In this document: in pieces, positions 34,682-43,092 of the stretch | How positions within the stretch are numbered: the stretch's first letter is position 1 | How the letters are laid out: each line of letters begins with the position of its first letter | Assembly: GCF_916858655.1 (NCBI RefSeq) | Contig: NZ_CAKASL010000001.1 | Coordinates: 1,116,001-1,180,000, forward strand | Direction: 5' to 3' | DNA length: 64,000 nt | DNA from: Aeromicrobium sp. Leaf350 | Lineage (GTDB): Bacteria; Actinomycetota; Actinomycetes; Propionibacteriales; Nocardioidaceae | Notes under the pieces: model-generated | What the model saw: only the letters and a program-made list of their open reading frames with translations | The model's database searches: none | Told to the model about the DNA's origin: nothing | Position numbers and translations under genes: made by a program

Positions 34682-34894
34682 ATGGCGGTGGGCACGGTGG
34701 ACTGGTACGACTGGCAGGCAGGAGAGGGGCGGATCGTCCCTGACGACGGCGGGCCGGACGTACCGGTCGATCATCACGGCATCACCGCGACCGAGCCGGT
34801 CCCCCTGCACTCGGGACAGCGTGTGAGGTTCGACGTGCTCCCGGGCCCGACCGGGCTCGCGGCCGACAACGTGCGCGGGGTCTGCGCTGCCTGA
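34682..34894 (+). CDS. degenerate cold-shock-like (OB-fold) small protein
   Basis: A 70-residue protein aligned by eye to bacterial cold-shock proteins: VGTVDWYDWQAGEGRIVPDD matches the start GTVKWFN..KGFGFI of the family. The RNA-binding motifs have changed: RNP1 KGFGFI is AGEGRI (residues 13-18) and RNP2 VFVHF is VPVDH (residues 27-31), so most stacking aromatics are gone. It therefore may not bind RNA normally. The AAGGAG site lies ten bases ahead of ATG 34682 and is sequestered in a hairpin. It is a single gene after the MFS exporter. Confidence 0.72.
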   Translation: MAVGTVDWYDWQAGEGRIVPDDGGPDVPVDHHGITATEPVPLHSGQRVRFDVLPGPTGLAADNVRGVCAA

Positions 34895-34998: not shown

Positions 34999-35946
34999 AT
35001 GACGAGCTCGCCCCGCCGAACCCTTCGCCCTGAGGACCTGCGTCCACACACGGCGTCGCCGTGGCCCATTCCCGGCGCCGGCGACACCGCGACCCGGTGG
35101 TCGAGTCTCGCCGACCTCGCCGCGCGCGACCTCCCGCTCGTCAAGGTCGTCGAGCCCCACCACGATGCGGCGGCGATCCTGGCCGACCTCGGTGGACGAC
35201 CGCCCCAGGACGACGAGATCTGGGGCGTCTGGGCGGCCGAACCGCCGTTCGCGGTGCTCACCGCGAGCCGCGACGGCGACCGCTGGACCCTGTCCGGGAC
35301 CAAGGCCTTCTGCTCCGGCGCCTCCCTCGTGACCCACGCCCTCGTGACCGCCAGGACTGACGCCGGAAGCCGCCTGTTCGCCGTCGAGCTCACGGACGGC
35401 GTCCGAGCCGACGACACCGCGCCCCGCTGGTCGGGCGCCGGCATGGCGCGCGCCGACACGACGGCGCTCGCGTTCGACGCCGTCGCCGCCACCCCGGTCG
35501 GCGACGTCGGCGACTACGTGGACCGCCCCGGGTTCTGGCTGGGCGCGATCGGCATCGCGGCCTGCTGGCTCGGAGGTGCCACCGGAGTCGCCGCGACCCT
35601 CGAGAAGGTGGCGCCGCGGCTCGACCCGCACGGCCTCGCGCACCTGGGTGCCGTCCGCGCGGCGCTCGACACGGCGCAGCTGGCGATGACCGCCGCCGCC
35701 GACCTGGCCGACCGGGAGGACCTGACGACCGAACGGTCGGAACGACTGGCCCATGCGCTCCGCGCCCACGCCGCCGGGACGGTCGAGACCGTCGTCAGCC
35801 ACGTGGGCCGTGCCCTCGGCCCGGGCCCCCTGGCGTTCGACGCGGCCCACGCTGAGCACGTGCAGGACCTGCAGGTCTTCGTCCGCCAGCACCACGCCGA
35901 GCGCGACCTCGAGCGGCTCGGGTCCCTGGGGGCTCCCGATGCCTGA
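34999..35946 (+). CDS. acyl-CoA dehydrogenase-like protein
   Basis: A 315-residue protein with the acyl-CoA dehydrogenase fold, shorter than the usual 380-400 residues because the N-terminal helical domain is reduced. WGVWAAEPPFAVLTASRDG and RWTLSGTKAFCSGASLVTHALV match the middle beta domain (flavin-side W-x-L-x-G-x-K). The C-terminal helices contain GAVRAALDTAQLAMTAA. The usual catalytic Glu is not obvious. It is the first gene of a four-gene operon; its end overlaps the deacetylase gene by eight bases. In this setting it may desaturate or oxidise an acyl group on a sugar lipid (inference). Confidence 0.75.
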   Translation: MTSSPRRTLRPEDLRPHTASPWPIPGAGDTATRWSSLADLAARDLPLVKVVEPHHDAAAILADLGGRPPQDDEIWGVWAAEPPFAVLTASRDGDRWTLSGTKAFCSGASLVTHALVTARTDAGSRLFAVELTDGVRADDTAPRWSGAGMARADTTALAFDAVAATPVGDVGDYVDRPGFWLGAIGIAACWLGGATGVAATLEKVAPRLDPHGLAHLGAVRAALDTAQLAMTAAADLADREDLTTERSERLAHALRAHAAGTVETVVSHVGRALGPGPLAFDAAHAEHVQDLQVFVRQHHAERDLERLGSLGAPDA

Positions 35947-36634
35947 GACCTGGAGCGACGTCCTGCACGACCTGCCCCTGGAGCGCCCTCATGACCCGGG
36001 CGGCTCGGTGCTCGTGCTGTCGGCCCACCCTGACGACGAGGTGCTCGCGGTCGGCGCCTGGCTGGCCTGCCAGGTCGAGCGACCCGTCACCTTCGTGACC
36101 GCGACGGACGGCGAGGCCTCCCACCCGGACAGCAGCTCCATCACCCCCGACGAGCTGAGGGAGCGGCGCCCGCGTGAGCTCCACGCCGCGCTGCGCCGCC
36201 TGGGCTTCGACGACCCGGACGTGCGCCGGCTGTGCCTGCCGGACGGGGGCCTGGACGACGCCCGACCGCAGCTGCGTGAGGCACTCGCGCCGCTGGTCGG
36301 CCCGGTCGACCTGGTGCTGGCCCCGTTCGAGCGCGACGGTCACCCGGACCACGACGCCCTCGGAGATGTCTCCCGCGAGCTCTGCGGGGACCACACGACC
36401 CTGTGGCGCTTCCCGATCTGGACGTGGGTGTGGAACCAGCCCGACGACGAGCCGTGGCTCGCCTCGGCACGACGGCTGCCCTCGGTGCCCGCCGCCGTCG
36501 ACCTCAAGCGCCGCGCCCTGACCGCCTTCGAGACGCAGGTGGCCCCGGTCGGGACGAGCGGCGGCGACGGGGCGATCGTCGACGACGCGCTCCTGCACCA
36601 CGCGACGACGGCCCCCGAGGTCGTGATCGTGTGA
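35939..36634 (+). CDS. PIG-L family deacetylase
   Basis: A 231-residue zinc-dependent N-deacetylase of the LmbE/PIG-L family. The metal and catalytic motif is AHPDDE at residues 29-34, with the second ligand in GHPDHDALGDV near residues 129-139. Family enzymes remove N-acetyl from GlcNAc attached to inositol, lipid or another carrier (MshB, BshB, PIG-L). No mycothiol gene is adjacent, and the neighbours are a methyltransferase and a glycosyltransferase, so another aminosugar product is likely. It overlaps both neighbours (8 bases upstream, 4 downstream). Confidence 0.87.
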   Translation: MPETWSDVLHDLPLERPHDPGGSVLVLSAHPDDEVLAVGAWLACQVERPVTFVTATDGEASHPDSSSITPDELRERRPRELHAALRRLGFDDPDVRRLCLPDGGLDDARPQLREALAPLVGPVDLVLAPFERDGHPDHDALGDVSRELCGDHTTLWRFPIWTWVWNQPDDEPWLASARRLPSVPAAVDLKRRALTAFETQVAPVGTSGGDGAIVDDALLHHATTAPEVVIV

Positions 36635-37191
36635 CCGCGCCCGAGTACTTCACCGACATGTACGCACGCTCCGCGGATCCGTGGCACCTCGGCGAGCGCG
36701 AGTACGAGCACCGCAAGTACGGCATCACCGTCGCCAGCCTTCCGCACCGGAGCTACGGCCGCGCATTCGAGCCGGGGTGCTCGATCGGCCTGCTGACGGC
36801 GCTCCTGGCGCCGCGCTGCGACGAGCTGCTCGCCACCGACGCGGTCGCCGCGCCGCTCGAGCAGGCCCGGAGGACCGTGCCGGACCCTCACGTCAGGTTC
36901 GAGCAGGCGTCGCTGCCCCACGAGTGGCCGGACGGCGAGCTCGACCTCGTGGTGCTGTCGGAGGTGCTCTACTTCCTGTCGGCCGAGGCCCGCGCCCAGG
37001 TGCGGGCGCGCGTGCTCGAGGGGCTGAGCGCCGAGGGGCACCTCGTCGTCGTGCACTGGCGGCACCCCTTCGACGAGGCCGACTGCACAGGCGACGACGC
37101 CCATCGTGAGCTCGGCGACGAGCCGGGGCTCACCACGATCGTCAGCCACGTCGAGGACGACTTCCGACTGGAGGTGATGGGCCGTGCCTGA
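36631..37191 (+). CDS. NodS-like SAM-dependent methyltransferase
   Basis: A 186-residue methyltransferase with the N-terminal signature YFTDMYARSADPWHLGEREYEHRKY of the NodS group split over residues 6-30, motif I EPGCSIG at residues 47-53, TDAVAAPLEQAR next, and LDLVVLSEVLYFL later. NodS itself N-methylates a deacetylated chitooligosaccharide, which matches the deacetylase next door. GTG 36631 overlaps the deacetylase stop (GTGA) and the gene overlaps the glycosyltransferase by eight bases. Confidence 0.84.
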   Translation: MTAPEYFTDMYARSADPWHLGEREYEHRKYGITVASLPHRSYGRAFEPGCSIGLLTALLAPRCDELLATDAVAAPLEQARRTVPDPHVRFEQASLPHEWPDGELDLVVLSEVLYFLSAEARAQVRARVLEGLSAEGHLVVVHWRHPFDEADCTGDDAHRELGDEPGLTTIVSHVEDDFRLEVMGRA

Positions 37192-37906
37192 GCACGAGAT
37201 CGACCACGTGGTGGTCGTCATTCCCGCGCGGGACGAGGAGGCGACGATCGCCGTCGCCGTCGACGCCGTCCGCACGGCCGCCGTGAACCTGCCGGCACCC
37301 GCGACGGTGGACGTGGTGGTGGTCGCGGACGCGTGCTCCGACCGGACGGTCGAGCTCGCCTCCGAGGCCGGTGCGCACGTCATCGTCTGCGACGAGGGCA
37401 ACGTCGGAGCCGCGCGTGCCCTCGGGTGCGCCTGGGCCCTGGACCGCGCTCACGACGTCGGCGCGCTCTGGCTGGCCCTCACCGACGCCGACAGCATCGT
37501 GCCGGCCGACTGGCTGGCCCGGCACGTCGAGGAGGCACGGGCGGGGGCCGACGTCCTGCTCGGCACGGTCGAGCTCGAGGCCGCCGAGGCGCGCCGACAC
37601 CCGCGATGGCTGCTCGGCTACCGGCGGCGCCGCACGGGCGCGGACCACGGGCACGTGCACGGGGCGAACCTCGGCGTGCGGGCCACGGCCTACCTGGCCG
37701 TGGGCGGCTTCCTCGACCTCCCGCTGCACGAGGACGTCGACCTGGTGACACGACTCCTGGCCGACGGAGCCACGCCGGCCTGGGTCGACGACGTCGCGGT
37801 GACGACGTCGGCCCGGCACCTGTCACGGGTCACCGGCGGGGTCGCGTCCGATCTCGCCGCCGGCGCCGACGTGGACACGGCGCCGGGGCGGATCGACGTG
37901 GCCTGA
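37184..37906 (+). CDS. family 2 glycosyltransferase
   Basis: A 240-residue GT-A glycosyltransferase. VVIPARDEEATI opens the nucleotide-binding fold at residues 11-22, the metal-binding DADS is at residues 101-104, and HGANLGVRATAYLAVGGF with HEDVDLVTRL is the acceptor and catalytic-base region. No membrane helix is present, so it is cytosolic or peripheral. The GTG start overlaps the methyltransferase gene by eight bases. It is the final gene of the four-gene operon, ending ten bases from a convergent gene. Confidence 0.87.
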   Translation: MPEHEIDHVVVVIPARDEEATIAVAVDAVRTAAVNLPAPATVDVVVVADACSDRTVELASEAGAHVIVCDEGNVGAARALGCAWALDRAHDVGALWLALTDADSIVPADWLARHVEEARAGADVLLGTVELEAAEARRHPRWLLGYRRRRTGADHGHVHGANLGVRATAYLAVGGFLDLPLHEDVDLVTRLLADGATPAWVDDVAVTTSARHLSRVTGGVASDLAAGADVDTAPGRIDVA

Positions 37907-38439: not shown

Positions 38440-38453
38440 GTGACGATCGTCAC
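38440..38453. promoter_or_regulatory. 14-base palindrome upstream of the protease remnant
   Basis: GTGACGATCGTCAC is fully self-complementary. A second dyad TCCGTCTGACGGA follows at 38459-38471. Both lie in the gap between divergent secreted-protein genes. Confidence 0.45.
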
Positions 38454-38517
38454 TATTCTCCGTCTGACGGAGTGCCGCGTGCAACTCGGCCTACGCGCAC
38501 CGAAACGGAGATCCACG

Positions 38518-39312
38518 ATGAATCGACCGATCACTCGCCTCCTGCCGCACATCGCGCTTGCCGTTGTCCTCAGCGCCGCAGCCTCCCCGCCCGTCGACGC
38601 AGCAGAGCAGTCGGGATCACGCCCCACCACGGCGGTGGGGACGGAGGCCTCCGTCACACCTGAAGCCATGCAGCCGGAGCCGTTCTCCGATGAAGAGCTC
38701 GCGTGGGAGGAGATCCGTCCGATGGGCGATGCCATGTTCATCATCGAGACCGACTACGCCGCCGATTTTGCCTACGCCCACTTCGCGGGGACGACCGCGG
38801 TGATCGGATTCCGCGGCGCCGCGCCCGAGGAGGCCCTCACCATCTTGGAAGCTGCGTCGCAGGACTTCCGCGTGGAGGAGCACGTGACCTACACCTACAC
38901 CGACTACCAGTTGGCCGCTGAGCGACTCGGTGAGGACATCAAGGAACGCGCCGATGCGGCGGGACTGACGCTCGACGCCCTCCTGACCGGACCGGCCCCT
39001 CAGGACGGTGCCGGCGTCATCTCGGCCACCGTCGTGTCCACGGACGGAGCGGACCTGAGCGCTCTCGGCGAGATCGCCAGGACCACGCCGGTCGCGGAAC
39101 CGTTCAGGACCAACGTAGTAGAAGGCTCCGACCCGCCCGAGGATCTCCAGTACAACCGCCACGGTGGCACGTGGCTCGTGGATCCAACGGGGTTGGGAGC
39201 CTGCACGTCGTCCTTCGTGGCCAAGCAATCGTCCGGCCCCAGGCTCGGGGTGGTGACTGCGGGGCACTGTCCCAACAGTCTGCGTTACTACAACGACCTC
39301 ATGGGAGCCTGA
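38518..39312 (+). pseudogene. truncated chymotrypsin-like serine protease
   Basis: The 264-residue product has a signal peptide (HIALAVVLSAAASPPVDAA, cleavage near residue 34), a pro-region-like stretch, and then the start of an S1 protease domain: GACTSSFVAKQSSGPRLG followed by VVTAGHCPNSLRYY with the catalytic His. It stops at DLMGA, before the catalytic Asp and Ser could occur, so it cannot be an active protease. Either a deletion removed the rest, or only the pro-region has a function. No continuation of the domain is visible in any frame before the convergent tspO-like gene. Confidence 0.65.
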
Positions 39313-40231: not shown

Positions 40232-41755
40232 TCAGGCCTTGTCCTGCATGCTCGAGCGAGCCTCGTTGCCCTGCTCCCCGGCCTTCGGGTCGGTCTCGTC
40301 GGCCTTCTCACGCACACCCGACTCGATGGCTGCACCGACGTCGCCGTCGATGTTGCGCCAGTACTCGAACGCACGCTGCAGGATCGGCTCGCTGACGCCG
40401 TTCAGGAGGTGACCGACGACGTTGTCGACGAGTCGGCCCCGAGCGTCCTCGTCCATGACGTCGCGCACGAGGGTGCCGGCCTGGCTGAAGTCGTCGTCGT
40501 CCTCGCGCAGCGTGTACGCGGCGCGCACCATGTCACCATCGGCGGCCCAGCGTCCGCCATCGTCGGTGCGGGCCGGGTCGGCCGCGGGACCGCCGTAGGA
40601 GTTCGGCGCGTACAGCGGGTCCTTCGTGTTCTGCACGCGCATCGCGCCGGCCGTCGAGTAGCTGTGGACGGGCGAGGTCGGCGCGTTGACCGGGATCTGC
40701 TTGTAGTTGACCCCCAGGCGCGCGCGGTGGGCGTCGGCGTAGCTGAAGCCGCGAGCGAGCAGCATCTTGTCGGGCGAGAGGCCGGTGCCGGGCACGATGT
40801 TGTTCGGCTCGAAGGCGGCCTGCTCCATCTCGGTGTGATAGTCCTCGACGTTGCGGTTCAGCGTCAGCCGGCCGACCTCGTGCAGCGGGTAGTCGGCGTG
40901 CGGCCACACCTTGGTCAGGTCGAACGGGTTGAGCCGATAGGTCTTCGCGTCCTCGAACGGCATGACCTGCACGTGCAGCGTCCAGCGGGGGTGCTCGCCG
41001 GACTCGATGTGCTCGAACAGGTCGCGCTGGTGGTAGTCGGTGTCGGCGGAAGCCATCTGGTCGGCCTCGTCCTGCGTGAAGGTCTCGATGCCCTGGTCGG
41101 TCTTGAAGTGGTACTTGACCCAGGAGAGCTCACCGCCGGCGTTGATCCACGAGTAGGTGTGACTGGAGTAGCCGTTCATGTGGCGCCAGGTGCGCGGGAT
41201 GCCGCGGTCGCCCATCAGCCAGGCGACCTGGTGCGAGGACTCGGGGCTGAGGGTCCAGAAGTCCCACTGCATGTCGTGGTCGCGCAGGTTGTTGTCGGCG
41301 CGACGCTTCTGGGAGCGGATGAAGTGCTGGAACTTCATGGGGTCCCGGATGAAGAACACGGGCGTGTTGTTGCCGACCATGTCCCAGTTGCCCTCGGACG
41401 TGAAGAACTTCAGCGAGAAGCCGCGCGGGTCGCGCCACGTGTCCGGGCTCCCGCGCTCGCCGGCGACGGTGGAGAACCGGGCGAGCACGTCGGTCTTCGT
41501 GCCGGGCGCGAACACGGCGGCGCGGGTCAGGGACGTGACGTCCTCGGTGACCTCGAACGTGCCGAAGGCGCCGCCACCCTTGGCGTGTGGCTGCCGCTCC
41601 GGGATGCGCTCCCGGTTGAAGTTGGCCATCTGCTCGATCAGGTAGTGGTCCTGCAGCAGCAGGGGGCCGTCCGGCCCCACGGTCAAGGAGTGCTCGTCGC
41701 TGGCGACGGGTGCACCGCCGTCGGTGGTGGTGGGACGCTGGCCCTGGTCAGTCAT
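40232..41755 (-). CDS. monofunctional haem catalase
   Basis: A 507-residue catalase degrading hydrogen peroxide. The active-site His lies in [17 protein letters not shown] near residue 57, the distal Asn in [13 protein letters not shown], and the proximal haem-ligand Tyr in [17 protein letters not shown] near residue 333. The length matches small-subunit catalases (KatA type). It is first in an operon with the TspO-like gene. An ORF extending further upstream would run into the HNH gene; ATG 41755 gives the normal N-terminus. Confidence 0.93.
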
Positions 41756-41792
41756 GTGAGCTCCTCGATCGACAAGTTTCTGTGGAGGAGTA

Positions 41793-41807
41793 CCCACCTC
41801 TGGTGGG
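41793..41807 (-). terminator. short hairpin after the HNH endonuclease gene
   Basis: CCCACC and GGTGGG form a 6-base stem with a three-base loop, ten bases after the HNH stop on the minus strand and upstream of catalase. Confidence 0.4.
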
Positions 41808-41817
41808 CGCACACGCG

Positions 41818-43092
41818 TCAGGTGCGGAGCGGCGGTTCGTGTTCTCGGGCCCGCTGCGCGTTTCTGCGGATGGTGCGGAGTCGCTCGCGGGTGGTGCGCC
41901 TGAGGGTGAGGTCGATGGGTCGGCCGTCGCGGGTGGTCATGGTGAACTGACCCCCACCAGTGGCTTCGACCTTCAAGAGACCTTGGTGAATCAACATGTG
42001 GCAGCACTCGCAGTAGCCGACGAGCTCATCAATGTTGGTCTTGCCGCCCTGGGACCACCAGTTCACGTGGTGGATCTCGAGGTGGGTGTTGGTGCAACCC
42101 GGCGCGGCGCACTGGCCGGCCTGCTTCGCGATGACCGCCTTGCGCTGGGCGGGGGTAGCGAGGCGGATGGTGTCGCCGACGTTGAGGATCTGGGCCTGCT
42201 CGACGTCCCCGCACGAGGTGAGGATGGGGGTCGATTCGCCGGTGCAGGTGATGTAGGACAGGAGCTTCGGCCCGATGGGCCCAAACCCCTGGAGCTCGGC
42301 CGAATCCCCGCCGGCCATCGTCTGGCTGGTCATGGCGTCGTGCAGGGTGTCGACCGGCACGATGACACTGACCTGGGGCCGGACGCCCTTGCTGGTCGGC
42401 AGACCCGACTCGAGGATCGCCGTCATCATCTTGTCGAGGGATGCGACGCGGCGTTCGGCGCTGGAGCGGTCGTCATTCTTGGTGACGGGGATGGAGAACG
42501 AGTCGAGCACGGCCTTGAACTTCGCGCCCGTCAGCGTGTTGAGGAAGCCCGTCAGGTGCCACCCGTCCGGAACGGGCGAGAGCTGGAAGTCTTCCTTGGC
42601 CATCCCCTTGATCCACGCCTCGTCCAGCTCGTCGGGATACACAGCCTCCCGAAGCTTGCGCACCACACGCCGCAGCTCGACCGGCTCGTTGGTCTTGGCG
42701 ACGTCGAGCAGCCAGGGCTGGGCGTTGCTGATGATCTGCGGGCTGATGTGCTTCATCCCGAAGGTGAAGAGCTTGACGTGCTCCAGACGGATCTGGCCGG
42801 CCGTCGCGGCTTCGGCCACCAGCGGCAGGTCACGCATCGTCGCGTCGGCAGCGATGAGCGACTTGGTCTGCTTCGCATCCAGACGCAAGTGCAGACGCGA
42901 CCAGGCAGTGATGGTGGAGGAGCCGTCGAGCTCGAACTCGGCGGTGCGGTCCATCTCGGCCAGGTGGTGCGCCTTCGCCGCGTCCAACGCGTCCTGAGCG
43001 ACCTGGATGGCCCGCAGTGCGGTGCGGTGGTCGCCGGAGTTCAGGGCGTGCGCGGCTTCACGAAGCGCCTGCACCGTGACCGCTGAACTCAT
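41818..43092 (-). CDS. DUF222 and HNH endonuclease domain protein (13E12-like)
   Basis: A 424-residue protein with a helical DUF222 region (about residues 5-300) and a C-terminal HNH nuclease motif: [19 protein letters not shown] then [21 protein letters not shown]. These proteins occur in many diverged copies in actinobacteria (13E12 repeats of mycobacteria). The start is ATG 43092, at or next to the predicted transcription start, so leaderless. A perfect SOS box lies in the promoter spacer, so DNA damage should induce it. Its actual role in DNA metabolism or mobile-element biology is unknown. Confidence 0.9.

What the first reader, a model, noticed from the sequence alone, without database searches (positions are those of the whole stretch)
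34999..37906. Overlapping four-gene operon: acyl-CoA dehydrogenase-like, PIG-L deacetylase, NodS-like methyltransferase, GT2
The genes overlap by 8, 4 and 8 bases, so their products are made together. Deacetylase + N-methyltransferase of the NodS type + glycosyltransferase parallels NodB-NodS-NodC of Nod-factor synthesis, and an acyl-CoA dehydrogenase could alter an acyl chain. I know of no characterised pathway with this set. The prediction is a modified aminosugar conjugate (lipid or thiol). This is my best candidate for an undescribed system.
Basis: partly seen in the sequence, partly recalled or inferred. Interest (0 to 1): 0.75.

Follow-up and report, generated by a model that had tools for sequence, protein, structure and literature searches.

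The report
Stress-linked Nod-like amino-sugar operon
Four overlapping genes, found side by side in bacteria of four phyla and sometimes next to stress-defence genes, are predicted to attach an amino sugar, strip its acetyl group and N-methylate it, much as rhizobia do for their plant signal; the product is unknown and a role in stress is only likely.

Summary
In detail: four co-directional genes overlap by 8, 4 and 8 bases at 34999-37906. It occurs in Actinomycetota, Pseudomonadota, Deinococcota and a cyanobacterium, patchily within the window's own family (methyltransferase in 37 of 120 genomes, flavoprotein in 34, both in 33). The best new evidence for the amino-sugar reading is an exchange: in 8 Rubrobacter-type loci PIG-L is absent and an unrelated NodB-family deacetylase is encoded just upstream. 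The methyltransferase's nearest characterised relative is NodS, PIG-L's is diacetylchitobiose deacetylase. The 'acyl-CoA dehydrogenase' has no acid at the usual base position and its profile matches flavin monooxygenases best. A SigB/SigF-type promoter motif lies upstream in 9 of 79 actinobacterial regions (shuffles 0.2), and catalase genes are over-represented nearby. Most likely: a stress-induced N-methyl-aminosugar glycoside pathway. Donor, acceptor, product and the flavoprotein's reaction are not shown. It is neither mycothiol synthesis nor a Nod-factor system.

The parts
34999..35946 (+). ACAD-fold flavoprotein (acyl-CoA-dehydrogenase-like), first gene of the operon
   Evidence: Pfam Acyl-CoA_dh_M; model pLDDT 94.5; profile best to DszC, MsuC; no acid at position 298 in 60 of 60 rows
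35939..36634 (+). PIG-L family deacetylase
   Evidence: Pfam PIG-L 81.4 bits; H30, D33, H135 and neighbours invariant in 25 of 25 rows; profile near diacetylchitobiose deacetylases
36631..37191 (+). NodS-like SAM-dependent methyltransferase
   Evidence: Pfam NodS; profile to 4isc 1.5e-60 and NodS 4.6e-31; sister of NodS in the tree
37184..37906 (+). Small GT-A family 2 glycosyltransferase
   Evidence: Pfam Glycos_transf_2; TDAD invariant in 47 of 47 rows; model pLDDT 91.0
40232..42007 (-). Catalase, 2.3 kb downstream, the only PF00199 match of this genome (neighbour, not part of the operon)
   Evidence: Pfam Catalase 610.6 bits; one match in G000; catalase in 12 of 122 operon neighbourhoods

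Best explanation
The four genes form one conserved operon that likely makes an N-methylated amino-sugar glycoside as part of a general stress response: the GT2 is predicted to add a GlcNAc-type sugar to an unknown acceptor, the PIG-L (in Rubrobacter-type loci probably a NodB-type enzyme instead) would remove the acetyl group, the NodS-like enzyme would methylate the freed amine, and the ACAD-fold flavoprotein would oxidise or N-oxygenate it. Shown here: the operon, its spread, the deacetylase exchange in the gene neighbourhood, the nearest relatives of each enzyme, and the enrichment of promoter motifs and catalase genes. Inferred: donor sugar, acceptor, order of steps, the flavoprotein's reaction and the protective role.
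For: Conserved gene set in four phyla. Exchange of PIG-L for a NodB-family deacetylase in 8 of 121 loci, one clade in the methyltransferase tree, CE4 motifs TFDDGPD and RPPW kept in 8 of 8. PIG-L profile nearest to diacetylchitobiose deacetylases among characterised proteins. Methyltransferase profile: NodS next after the unnamed 4isc, then phosphoethanolamine N-methyltransferases. GT-flavoprotein fusion in Methylobacterium aquaticum. Flavoprotein profile and Foldseek put flavin monooxygenases first, KijD3 (amino-sugar N-oxygenase; function recalled) among them. SigB/SigF-type motif 9 of 79 upstream regions, shuffles 0.20, reverse strand 0. Catalase in 12 of 122 neighbourhoods against about 0.3-0.45 expected. 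Trehalose genes otsA/otsB in or beside the operon in 4 loci.
Confidence: 0.45

Rival explanations
1. The operon decorates a surface polysaccharide or glycolipid (deacetylated, N-methylated aminosugar residues), and the stress link is incidental.
For: Extra glycosyltransferases beside the operon in Novosphingobium, L156, L159, L160 and some Aeromicrobium; single proteins with GT2, NodS-like and NodB-like domains lie among polysaccharide genes in R. leguminosarum; glf beside it in D. gobiensis.
Against: 82 of 121 loci show just the four genes in the canonical order (extra genes were not scored locus by locus); none of the four proteins has a membrane-helix-like segment; no flippase or polymerase was seen in the annotated minimal loci such as Sulfitobacter or Pandoraea.
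Confidence: 0.3
2. The first gene is a true acyl-CoA dehydrogenase and the operon makes an acylated amino-sugar lipid.
For: Overall fold; structural Z to acyl-CoA dehydrogenases is as high as to monooxygenases; a conserved acid lies three residues past the usual base.
Against: The usual base position carries H, S, P, Q, A, G or F, never an acid, in 60 of 60 rows (by gap-free extension of the alignment); the family profile ranks DszC and MsuC above acyl-CoA dehydrogenases; no acyltransferase is among the four genes.
Confidence: 0.12
3. It is a variant thiol (mycothiol-like) pathway.
For: PIG-L enzymes act in mycothiol and bacillithiol synthesis; weak matches to BshB1, BshB2 and MshB models.
Against: Scores are 37.3, 34.8 and 24.4 bits against cut-offs of 182.5, 195.25 and 224.35; the genome has a separate MshB at 343.3 bits; no ligase gene is among the four.
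Confidence: 0.04

Closest known systems
Rhizobial Nod-factor genes nodB-nodC-nodS
   Same: Deacetylase + NodS-type methyltransferase + GT2; the MT family is sister to NodS; in Rubrobacter-type loci the deacetylase is itself NodB-family
   Different: No NodA or NodC among the four genes, small GT without membrane helices, added ACAD-fold flavoprotein, PIG-L in most loci, non-symbiotic hosts
Trifunctional GT2/NodS-like/polysaccharide-deacetylase proteins (R. leguminosarum, Gloeothece)
   Same: Same three activities predicted, in one protein
   Different: No flavoprotein in the two annotated neighbourhoods, different branch of the methyltransferase tree
Diacetylchitobiose deacetylase (Dac), MshB, BshB (PIG-L family)
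   Same: Zinc-motif residues kept; profile E 3.2e-25 to Dac
   Different: Below equivalog cut-offs for MshB and BshB; genomic setting differs
Flavin monooxygenases of the ACAD fold (DszC, MsuC; nitrososynthases KijD3, DnmZ, ORF36)
   Same: Best profile and Foldseek matches; K-x-F-C-S-G-A stretch shared with DszC
   Different: About 20% identity, shorter N-terminus, no oxygenase activity shown; an FAD oxidoreductase gene was found only in the 7 Rubrobacter-type operons
4isc, solved 'Methyltransferase' (P. syringae as recalled)
   Same: Closest solved relative of the methyltransferase (1.5e-60)
   Different: No function recorded in the entry name; its gene neighbourhood was not examined here

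Membership tests
NodS (NCBIfam NF041650) | Score over the curated equivalog cut-off (300 bits) | tested here: not met
   55.7 bits
NodS (NCBIfam NF041650) | Groups with rhizobial NodS in a tree | tested here: not met
   Operon MTs part from NodS + trifunctional proteins at 99/97; only 2 NodS rows after thinning
Nod-factor system | NodA acyltransferase and membrane chitin synthase NodC with NodB | tested here: not met
   None among the four genes; GT without membrane-helix-like segment. The rest of the genome was not searched for NodA.
PIG-L deacetylase (PF02585) | Pfam gathering score and zinc-site residues | tested here: met
   81.4 bits against 28.2; H30, D32, D33, H135, D137, H138 invariant in 25 of 25 rows
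Mycothiol pathway (MshB, TIGR03445) | Score over the equivalog cut-off | tested here: not met
   24.4 of 224.35 bits; genuine MshB elsewhere in the genome
Acyl-CoA dehydrogenase | Catalytic Glu in the C-terminal Y/F-E-G position (role recalled) | tested here: not met
   0 of 60 rows have an acid at aligned position 298; alignment extended without gaps
ACAD-fold flavin monooxygenase | Closer to monooxygenases than to dehydrogenases | tested here: inconclusive
   Profile and Foldseek favour DszC/MsuC; VIA-align Z tied
ACAD-fold flavin monooxygenase | Oxygen-dependent turnover with reduced flavin | not testable with these tools
   needs the enzyme
GT2 glycosyltransferase (PF00535) | Pfam gathering score and D-x-D type motif | tested here: met
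   57.5 bits against 23.3; TDAD invariant in 47 of 47 rows
General stress (SigB/SigF-type) regulon | GTTT-N~15-GGGTA promoter upstream (consensus recalled) | tested here: inconclusive
   9 of 79 regions against shuffle mean 0.20; the window has no strict match

The most novel reading that the evidence does not exclude
The operon makes an unknown class of stress metabolite, an N-methylated or N-oxygenated glucosaminide of a small sugar such as trehalose, assembled with Nod-factor chemistry by non-symbiotic bacteria; the flavoprotein is an amino-sugar N-oxygenase, and the rhizobial NodB-NodS pair shares its origin with this older tailoring pair.
Probability: 0.12. Interest if true: 0.85.

Novelty: new variant of a known kind. 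Interest (0 to 1): 0.62.

Why it matters
If right, a biosynthetic pathway shared by four phyla has gone unnamed, and the deacetylate-then-N-methylate step known from plant-symbiont signals is much wider, with a likely role in surviving oxidative or osmotic stress. It turns a vague gene set into a test with four purified enzymes and one deletion strain, and it would give a setting to a solved structure that carries no function in its name (4isc).

Tried and rejected
Paper searches: ten, on PIG-L/LmbE, NodS, acyl-CoA dehydrogenase, glycosyltransferase, stress, desiccation, nitrososynthase and 4ISC. Nine returned zero papers; one search returned 113 for two of three terms, of which I saw only the listing of 10, none on this set by title and abstract start. 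I read no paper. The library is partial, so 'not in print' is not claimed.

Mycothiol/bacillithiol route: rejected. Membership in the Nod-factor system: rejected. EcfG-type promoter: 2 of 12 loci, no support. Relaxed Streptomyces SigB motif: 10 forward, 4 reverse, shuffle mean 1.02, weaker. The 400-residue N-terminus of the Deinococcus flavoprotein gave no Pfam match and no credible PDB match. A first script missed PIG-L in five Microbacteriaceae loci and one Streptomyces locus; reading the slot showed divergent PIG-L genes, and the rebuilt profile found them. The GT fold search gave only general GT-A matches. The canonical reference set was four ORFs picked by a motif; one of them (L173) does not look like an acyl-CoA dehydrogenase, so the base position rests on the other three.

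Full report
CHECK OF THE OBSERVATION. Pfam matches are Acyl-CoA_dh_M (marginal), PIG-L, NodS and Glycos_transf_2. The genome has three PIG-L matches in all.

SPREAD. The methyltransferase was the probe. In plasmid records 161 of 72,556 match it; many of the weaker ones are annotated nodS. Of the annotated neighbourhoods I opened, Kitasatospora, two Deinococcus, Sulfitobacter, Novosphingobium, Bradyrhizobium, Komagataeibacter, Acinetobacter soli, Pandoraea and Comamonas show flavoprotein, PIG-L and methyltransferase in that order (in D. radiodurans with a helicase gene in between); Cupriavidus has its PIG-L on the other strand; Rubrobacter has none; Paraburkholderia D15 has only methyltransferase and GT there. 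Unannotated Nostoc and Methylobacterium loci carry the set. In an even draw of 149 Actinomycetota genomes, own included, 14 have the methyltransferase at E <= 1e-10. In 120 genomes of the window's family it is in 37, the flavoprotein in 34, both in 33; 32 of those 33 pairs lie on one contig within 1,777 bases and the 33rd (G178) is cut by contig ends. The five unmatched genomes: G211 and G175 have the methyltransferase with no core partner in the stretch fetched, G241 has PIG-L and methyltransferase, G187 a broken match on a short contig, and in G221 the flavoprotein lies at a contig end. In an even draw of 200 Pseudomonadota genomes 19 match: the centre genome itself, chosen because it has the operon; 12 of operon type, all 12 with the flavoprotein near the methyltransferase and 9 of 12 with PIG-L; and 6 with long open frames of 880-1,131 residues, of which the one I opened carries GT and methyltransferase in one frame. 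The cluster is ancient or much transferred, and patchy.

ORDER. Of 121 loci (window apart), 82 have ACAD-PIGL-MT-GT in that order on one strand, 117 have the flavoprotein within 5 kb of the methyltransferase, 107 have PIG-L on the operon strand, 8 have a NodB-type gene instead and 6 neither (L022, L026, L126, L154, L155, L160; in L026 a PIG-L gene lies on the other strand). The loci were chosen by methyltransferase similarity and 80 are the top of one scan, so these are not population frequencies. Left out of this count: trifunctional loci L027, L028, L165, the NodS loci and the duplicate L130. In Methylobacterium aquaticum GT and flavoprotein are one 788-residue frame.

THE DEACETYLASE EXCHANGE. 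Eight loci of a Rubrobacter-type group (L023, L117-L123) have no PIG-L match. A polysaccharide deacetylase of the CE4/NodB family is encoded upstream of the flavoprotein (in L122, which has no flavoprotein match, upstream of the methyltransferase), and seven have a pyridine-nucleotide FAD oxidoreductase between methyltransferase and GT. For the Rubrobacter protein the best NCBIfam model is NodB (113.4 bits, cut-off 240). TFDDGPD and RPPW are kept in 8 of 8; a pattern for the usual second motif found nothing, but the five I then printed have H-C-x-x-H-x-x-H in its place. Their methyltransferases form one clade (4 rows after thinning, 96/87), so one exchange suffices; its direction is not settled. 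Two unrelated folds with one known chemistry in one operon is the strongest evidence here for de-N-acetylation of a sugar.

THE METHYLTRANSFERASE. The family profile finds 4isc (1.5e-60, named only 'Methyltransferase'), NodS (4.6e-31), then phosphoethanolamine N-methyltransferases (8.5e-18). A tree of 62 rows (137 before thinning at 65% identity) parts the operon family from NodS and trifunctional proteins at 99/97. It is a sister family of NodS, not NodS; the equivalog score is 55.7 of 300.

THE PIG-L. The motif residues are invariant in 25 of 25 rows. The profile is nearest to 1uan (uncharacterised, 2.6e-25) and diacetylchitobiose deacetylases (3.2e-25), then glycopeptide deacetylases, BshB1 and MshB. 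The genome's MshB is another gene.

THE GT. A GT-A model (pLDDT 91.0) with an invariant TDAD; matches are general, maximum 19-residue hydropathy 1.37. Not NodC-like.

STRESS CONTEXT. In up to 450 bases before the first conserved domain, GTTT-N13-17-GGG[TA]A occurs in 9 of 79 actinobacterial regions (window included; 4 of 83 were dropped as too short), on the reverse strand in 0, and in dinucleotide shuffles 0.20 on average, maximum 1 in 60 rounds; the form G[TG]TT-N13-17-GGGTA in 11, 0 and 0.15. The 9 lie in 5 genus labels and the 11 in 7, so they are not independent cases. The window has no match; three other Aeromicrobium loci (L042, L043, L062) match one of the variants. That this is the SigB/SigF consensus is recalled. 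Catalase genes lie in 12 of 122 neighbourhoods (1.80 Mb, 8 genus labels); densities of 21 per about 85 Mb in 20 relatives and 26 per about 149 Mb in 40 Pseudomonadota would give about 0.3-0.45 (my arithmetic on rounded sizes; Streptomyces densities were not measured). In the window's genome the single catalase is 2.3 kb from the operon. otsA/otsB enclose or precede the operon on its own strand in Comamonas antarctica, L157 and L161, and lie opposite in Acinetobacter soli. Single annotated loci also show Ku/LigD, CsbD, a 'general stress protein', ferritin-like proteins and spore photoproduct lyase.

MECHANISM. A GT2 places a GlcNAc-type sugar on an acceptor, the deacetylase frees the amine, the methyltransferase N-methylates it, the flavoprotein oxidises it, under stress control. 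Shown: gene set, exchange in the neighbourhood, family relations, motif and catalase enrichment. Inferred: everything about substrates, product and role.

NOVELTY. Each enzyme family is known and the deacetylate-methylate logic is known from Nod factors (recalled). The set, its flavoprotein partner, the non-symbiotic hosts and the stress context did not appear in my ten searches of a partial library. I call it a new variant of a known kind.

Noticed in passing
L021 181-1380 and L020 2899-4098 (Deinococcus plasmid records): The Deinococcus flavoprotein has an extra 400-residue N-terminus shared by the two species, with no Pfam match and no credible PDB match.
   Followed up: partly
L036 2860-5226 (Methylobacterium aquaticum): GT2 and flavoprotein are fused in one 788-residue frame.
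   Followed up: partly
L035 2948-7944 (Comamonas antarctica plasmid): The four genes sit inside an otsA ... otsB trehalose operon.
   Followed up: partly
L040 5128-6339, L041, L025 6543-7394, L126, L156, L159, L160 6829-7719: A second glycosyltransferase-like family recurs beside the operon in several genera.
   Followed up: partly
   Followed up: no
window 34682-34894 (+): A cold-shock-domain protein (Pfam CSD) is encoded just upstream of the operon.
   Followed up: no
window 38440-39312 (+): An ORF with a trypsin-like AGHC stretch ends soon after it; it may be a truncated protease. Seen by eye only.
   Followed up: no
protein hit P0101: A flavoprotein 60% identical to the window's is named by its source as from Cytobacillus oceanisediminis; possibly contamination or a wrong label.
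   Followed up: no
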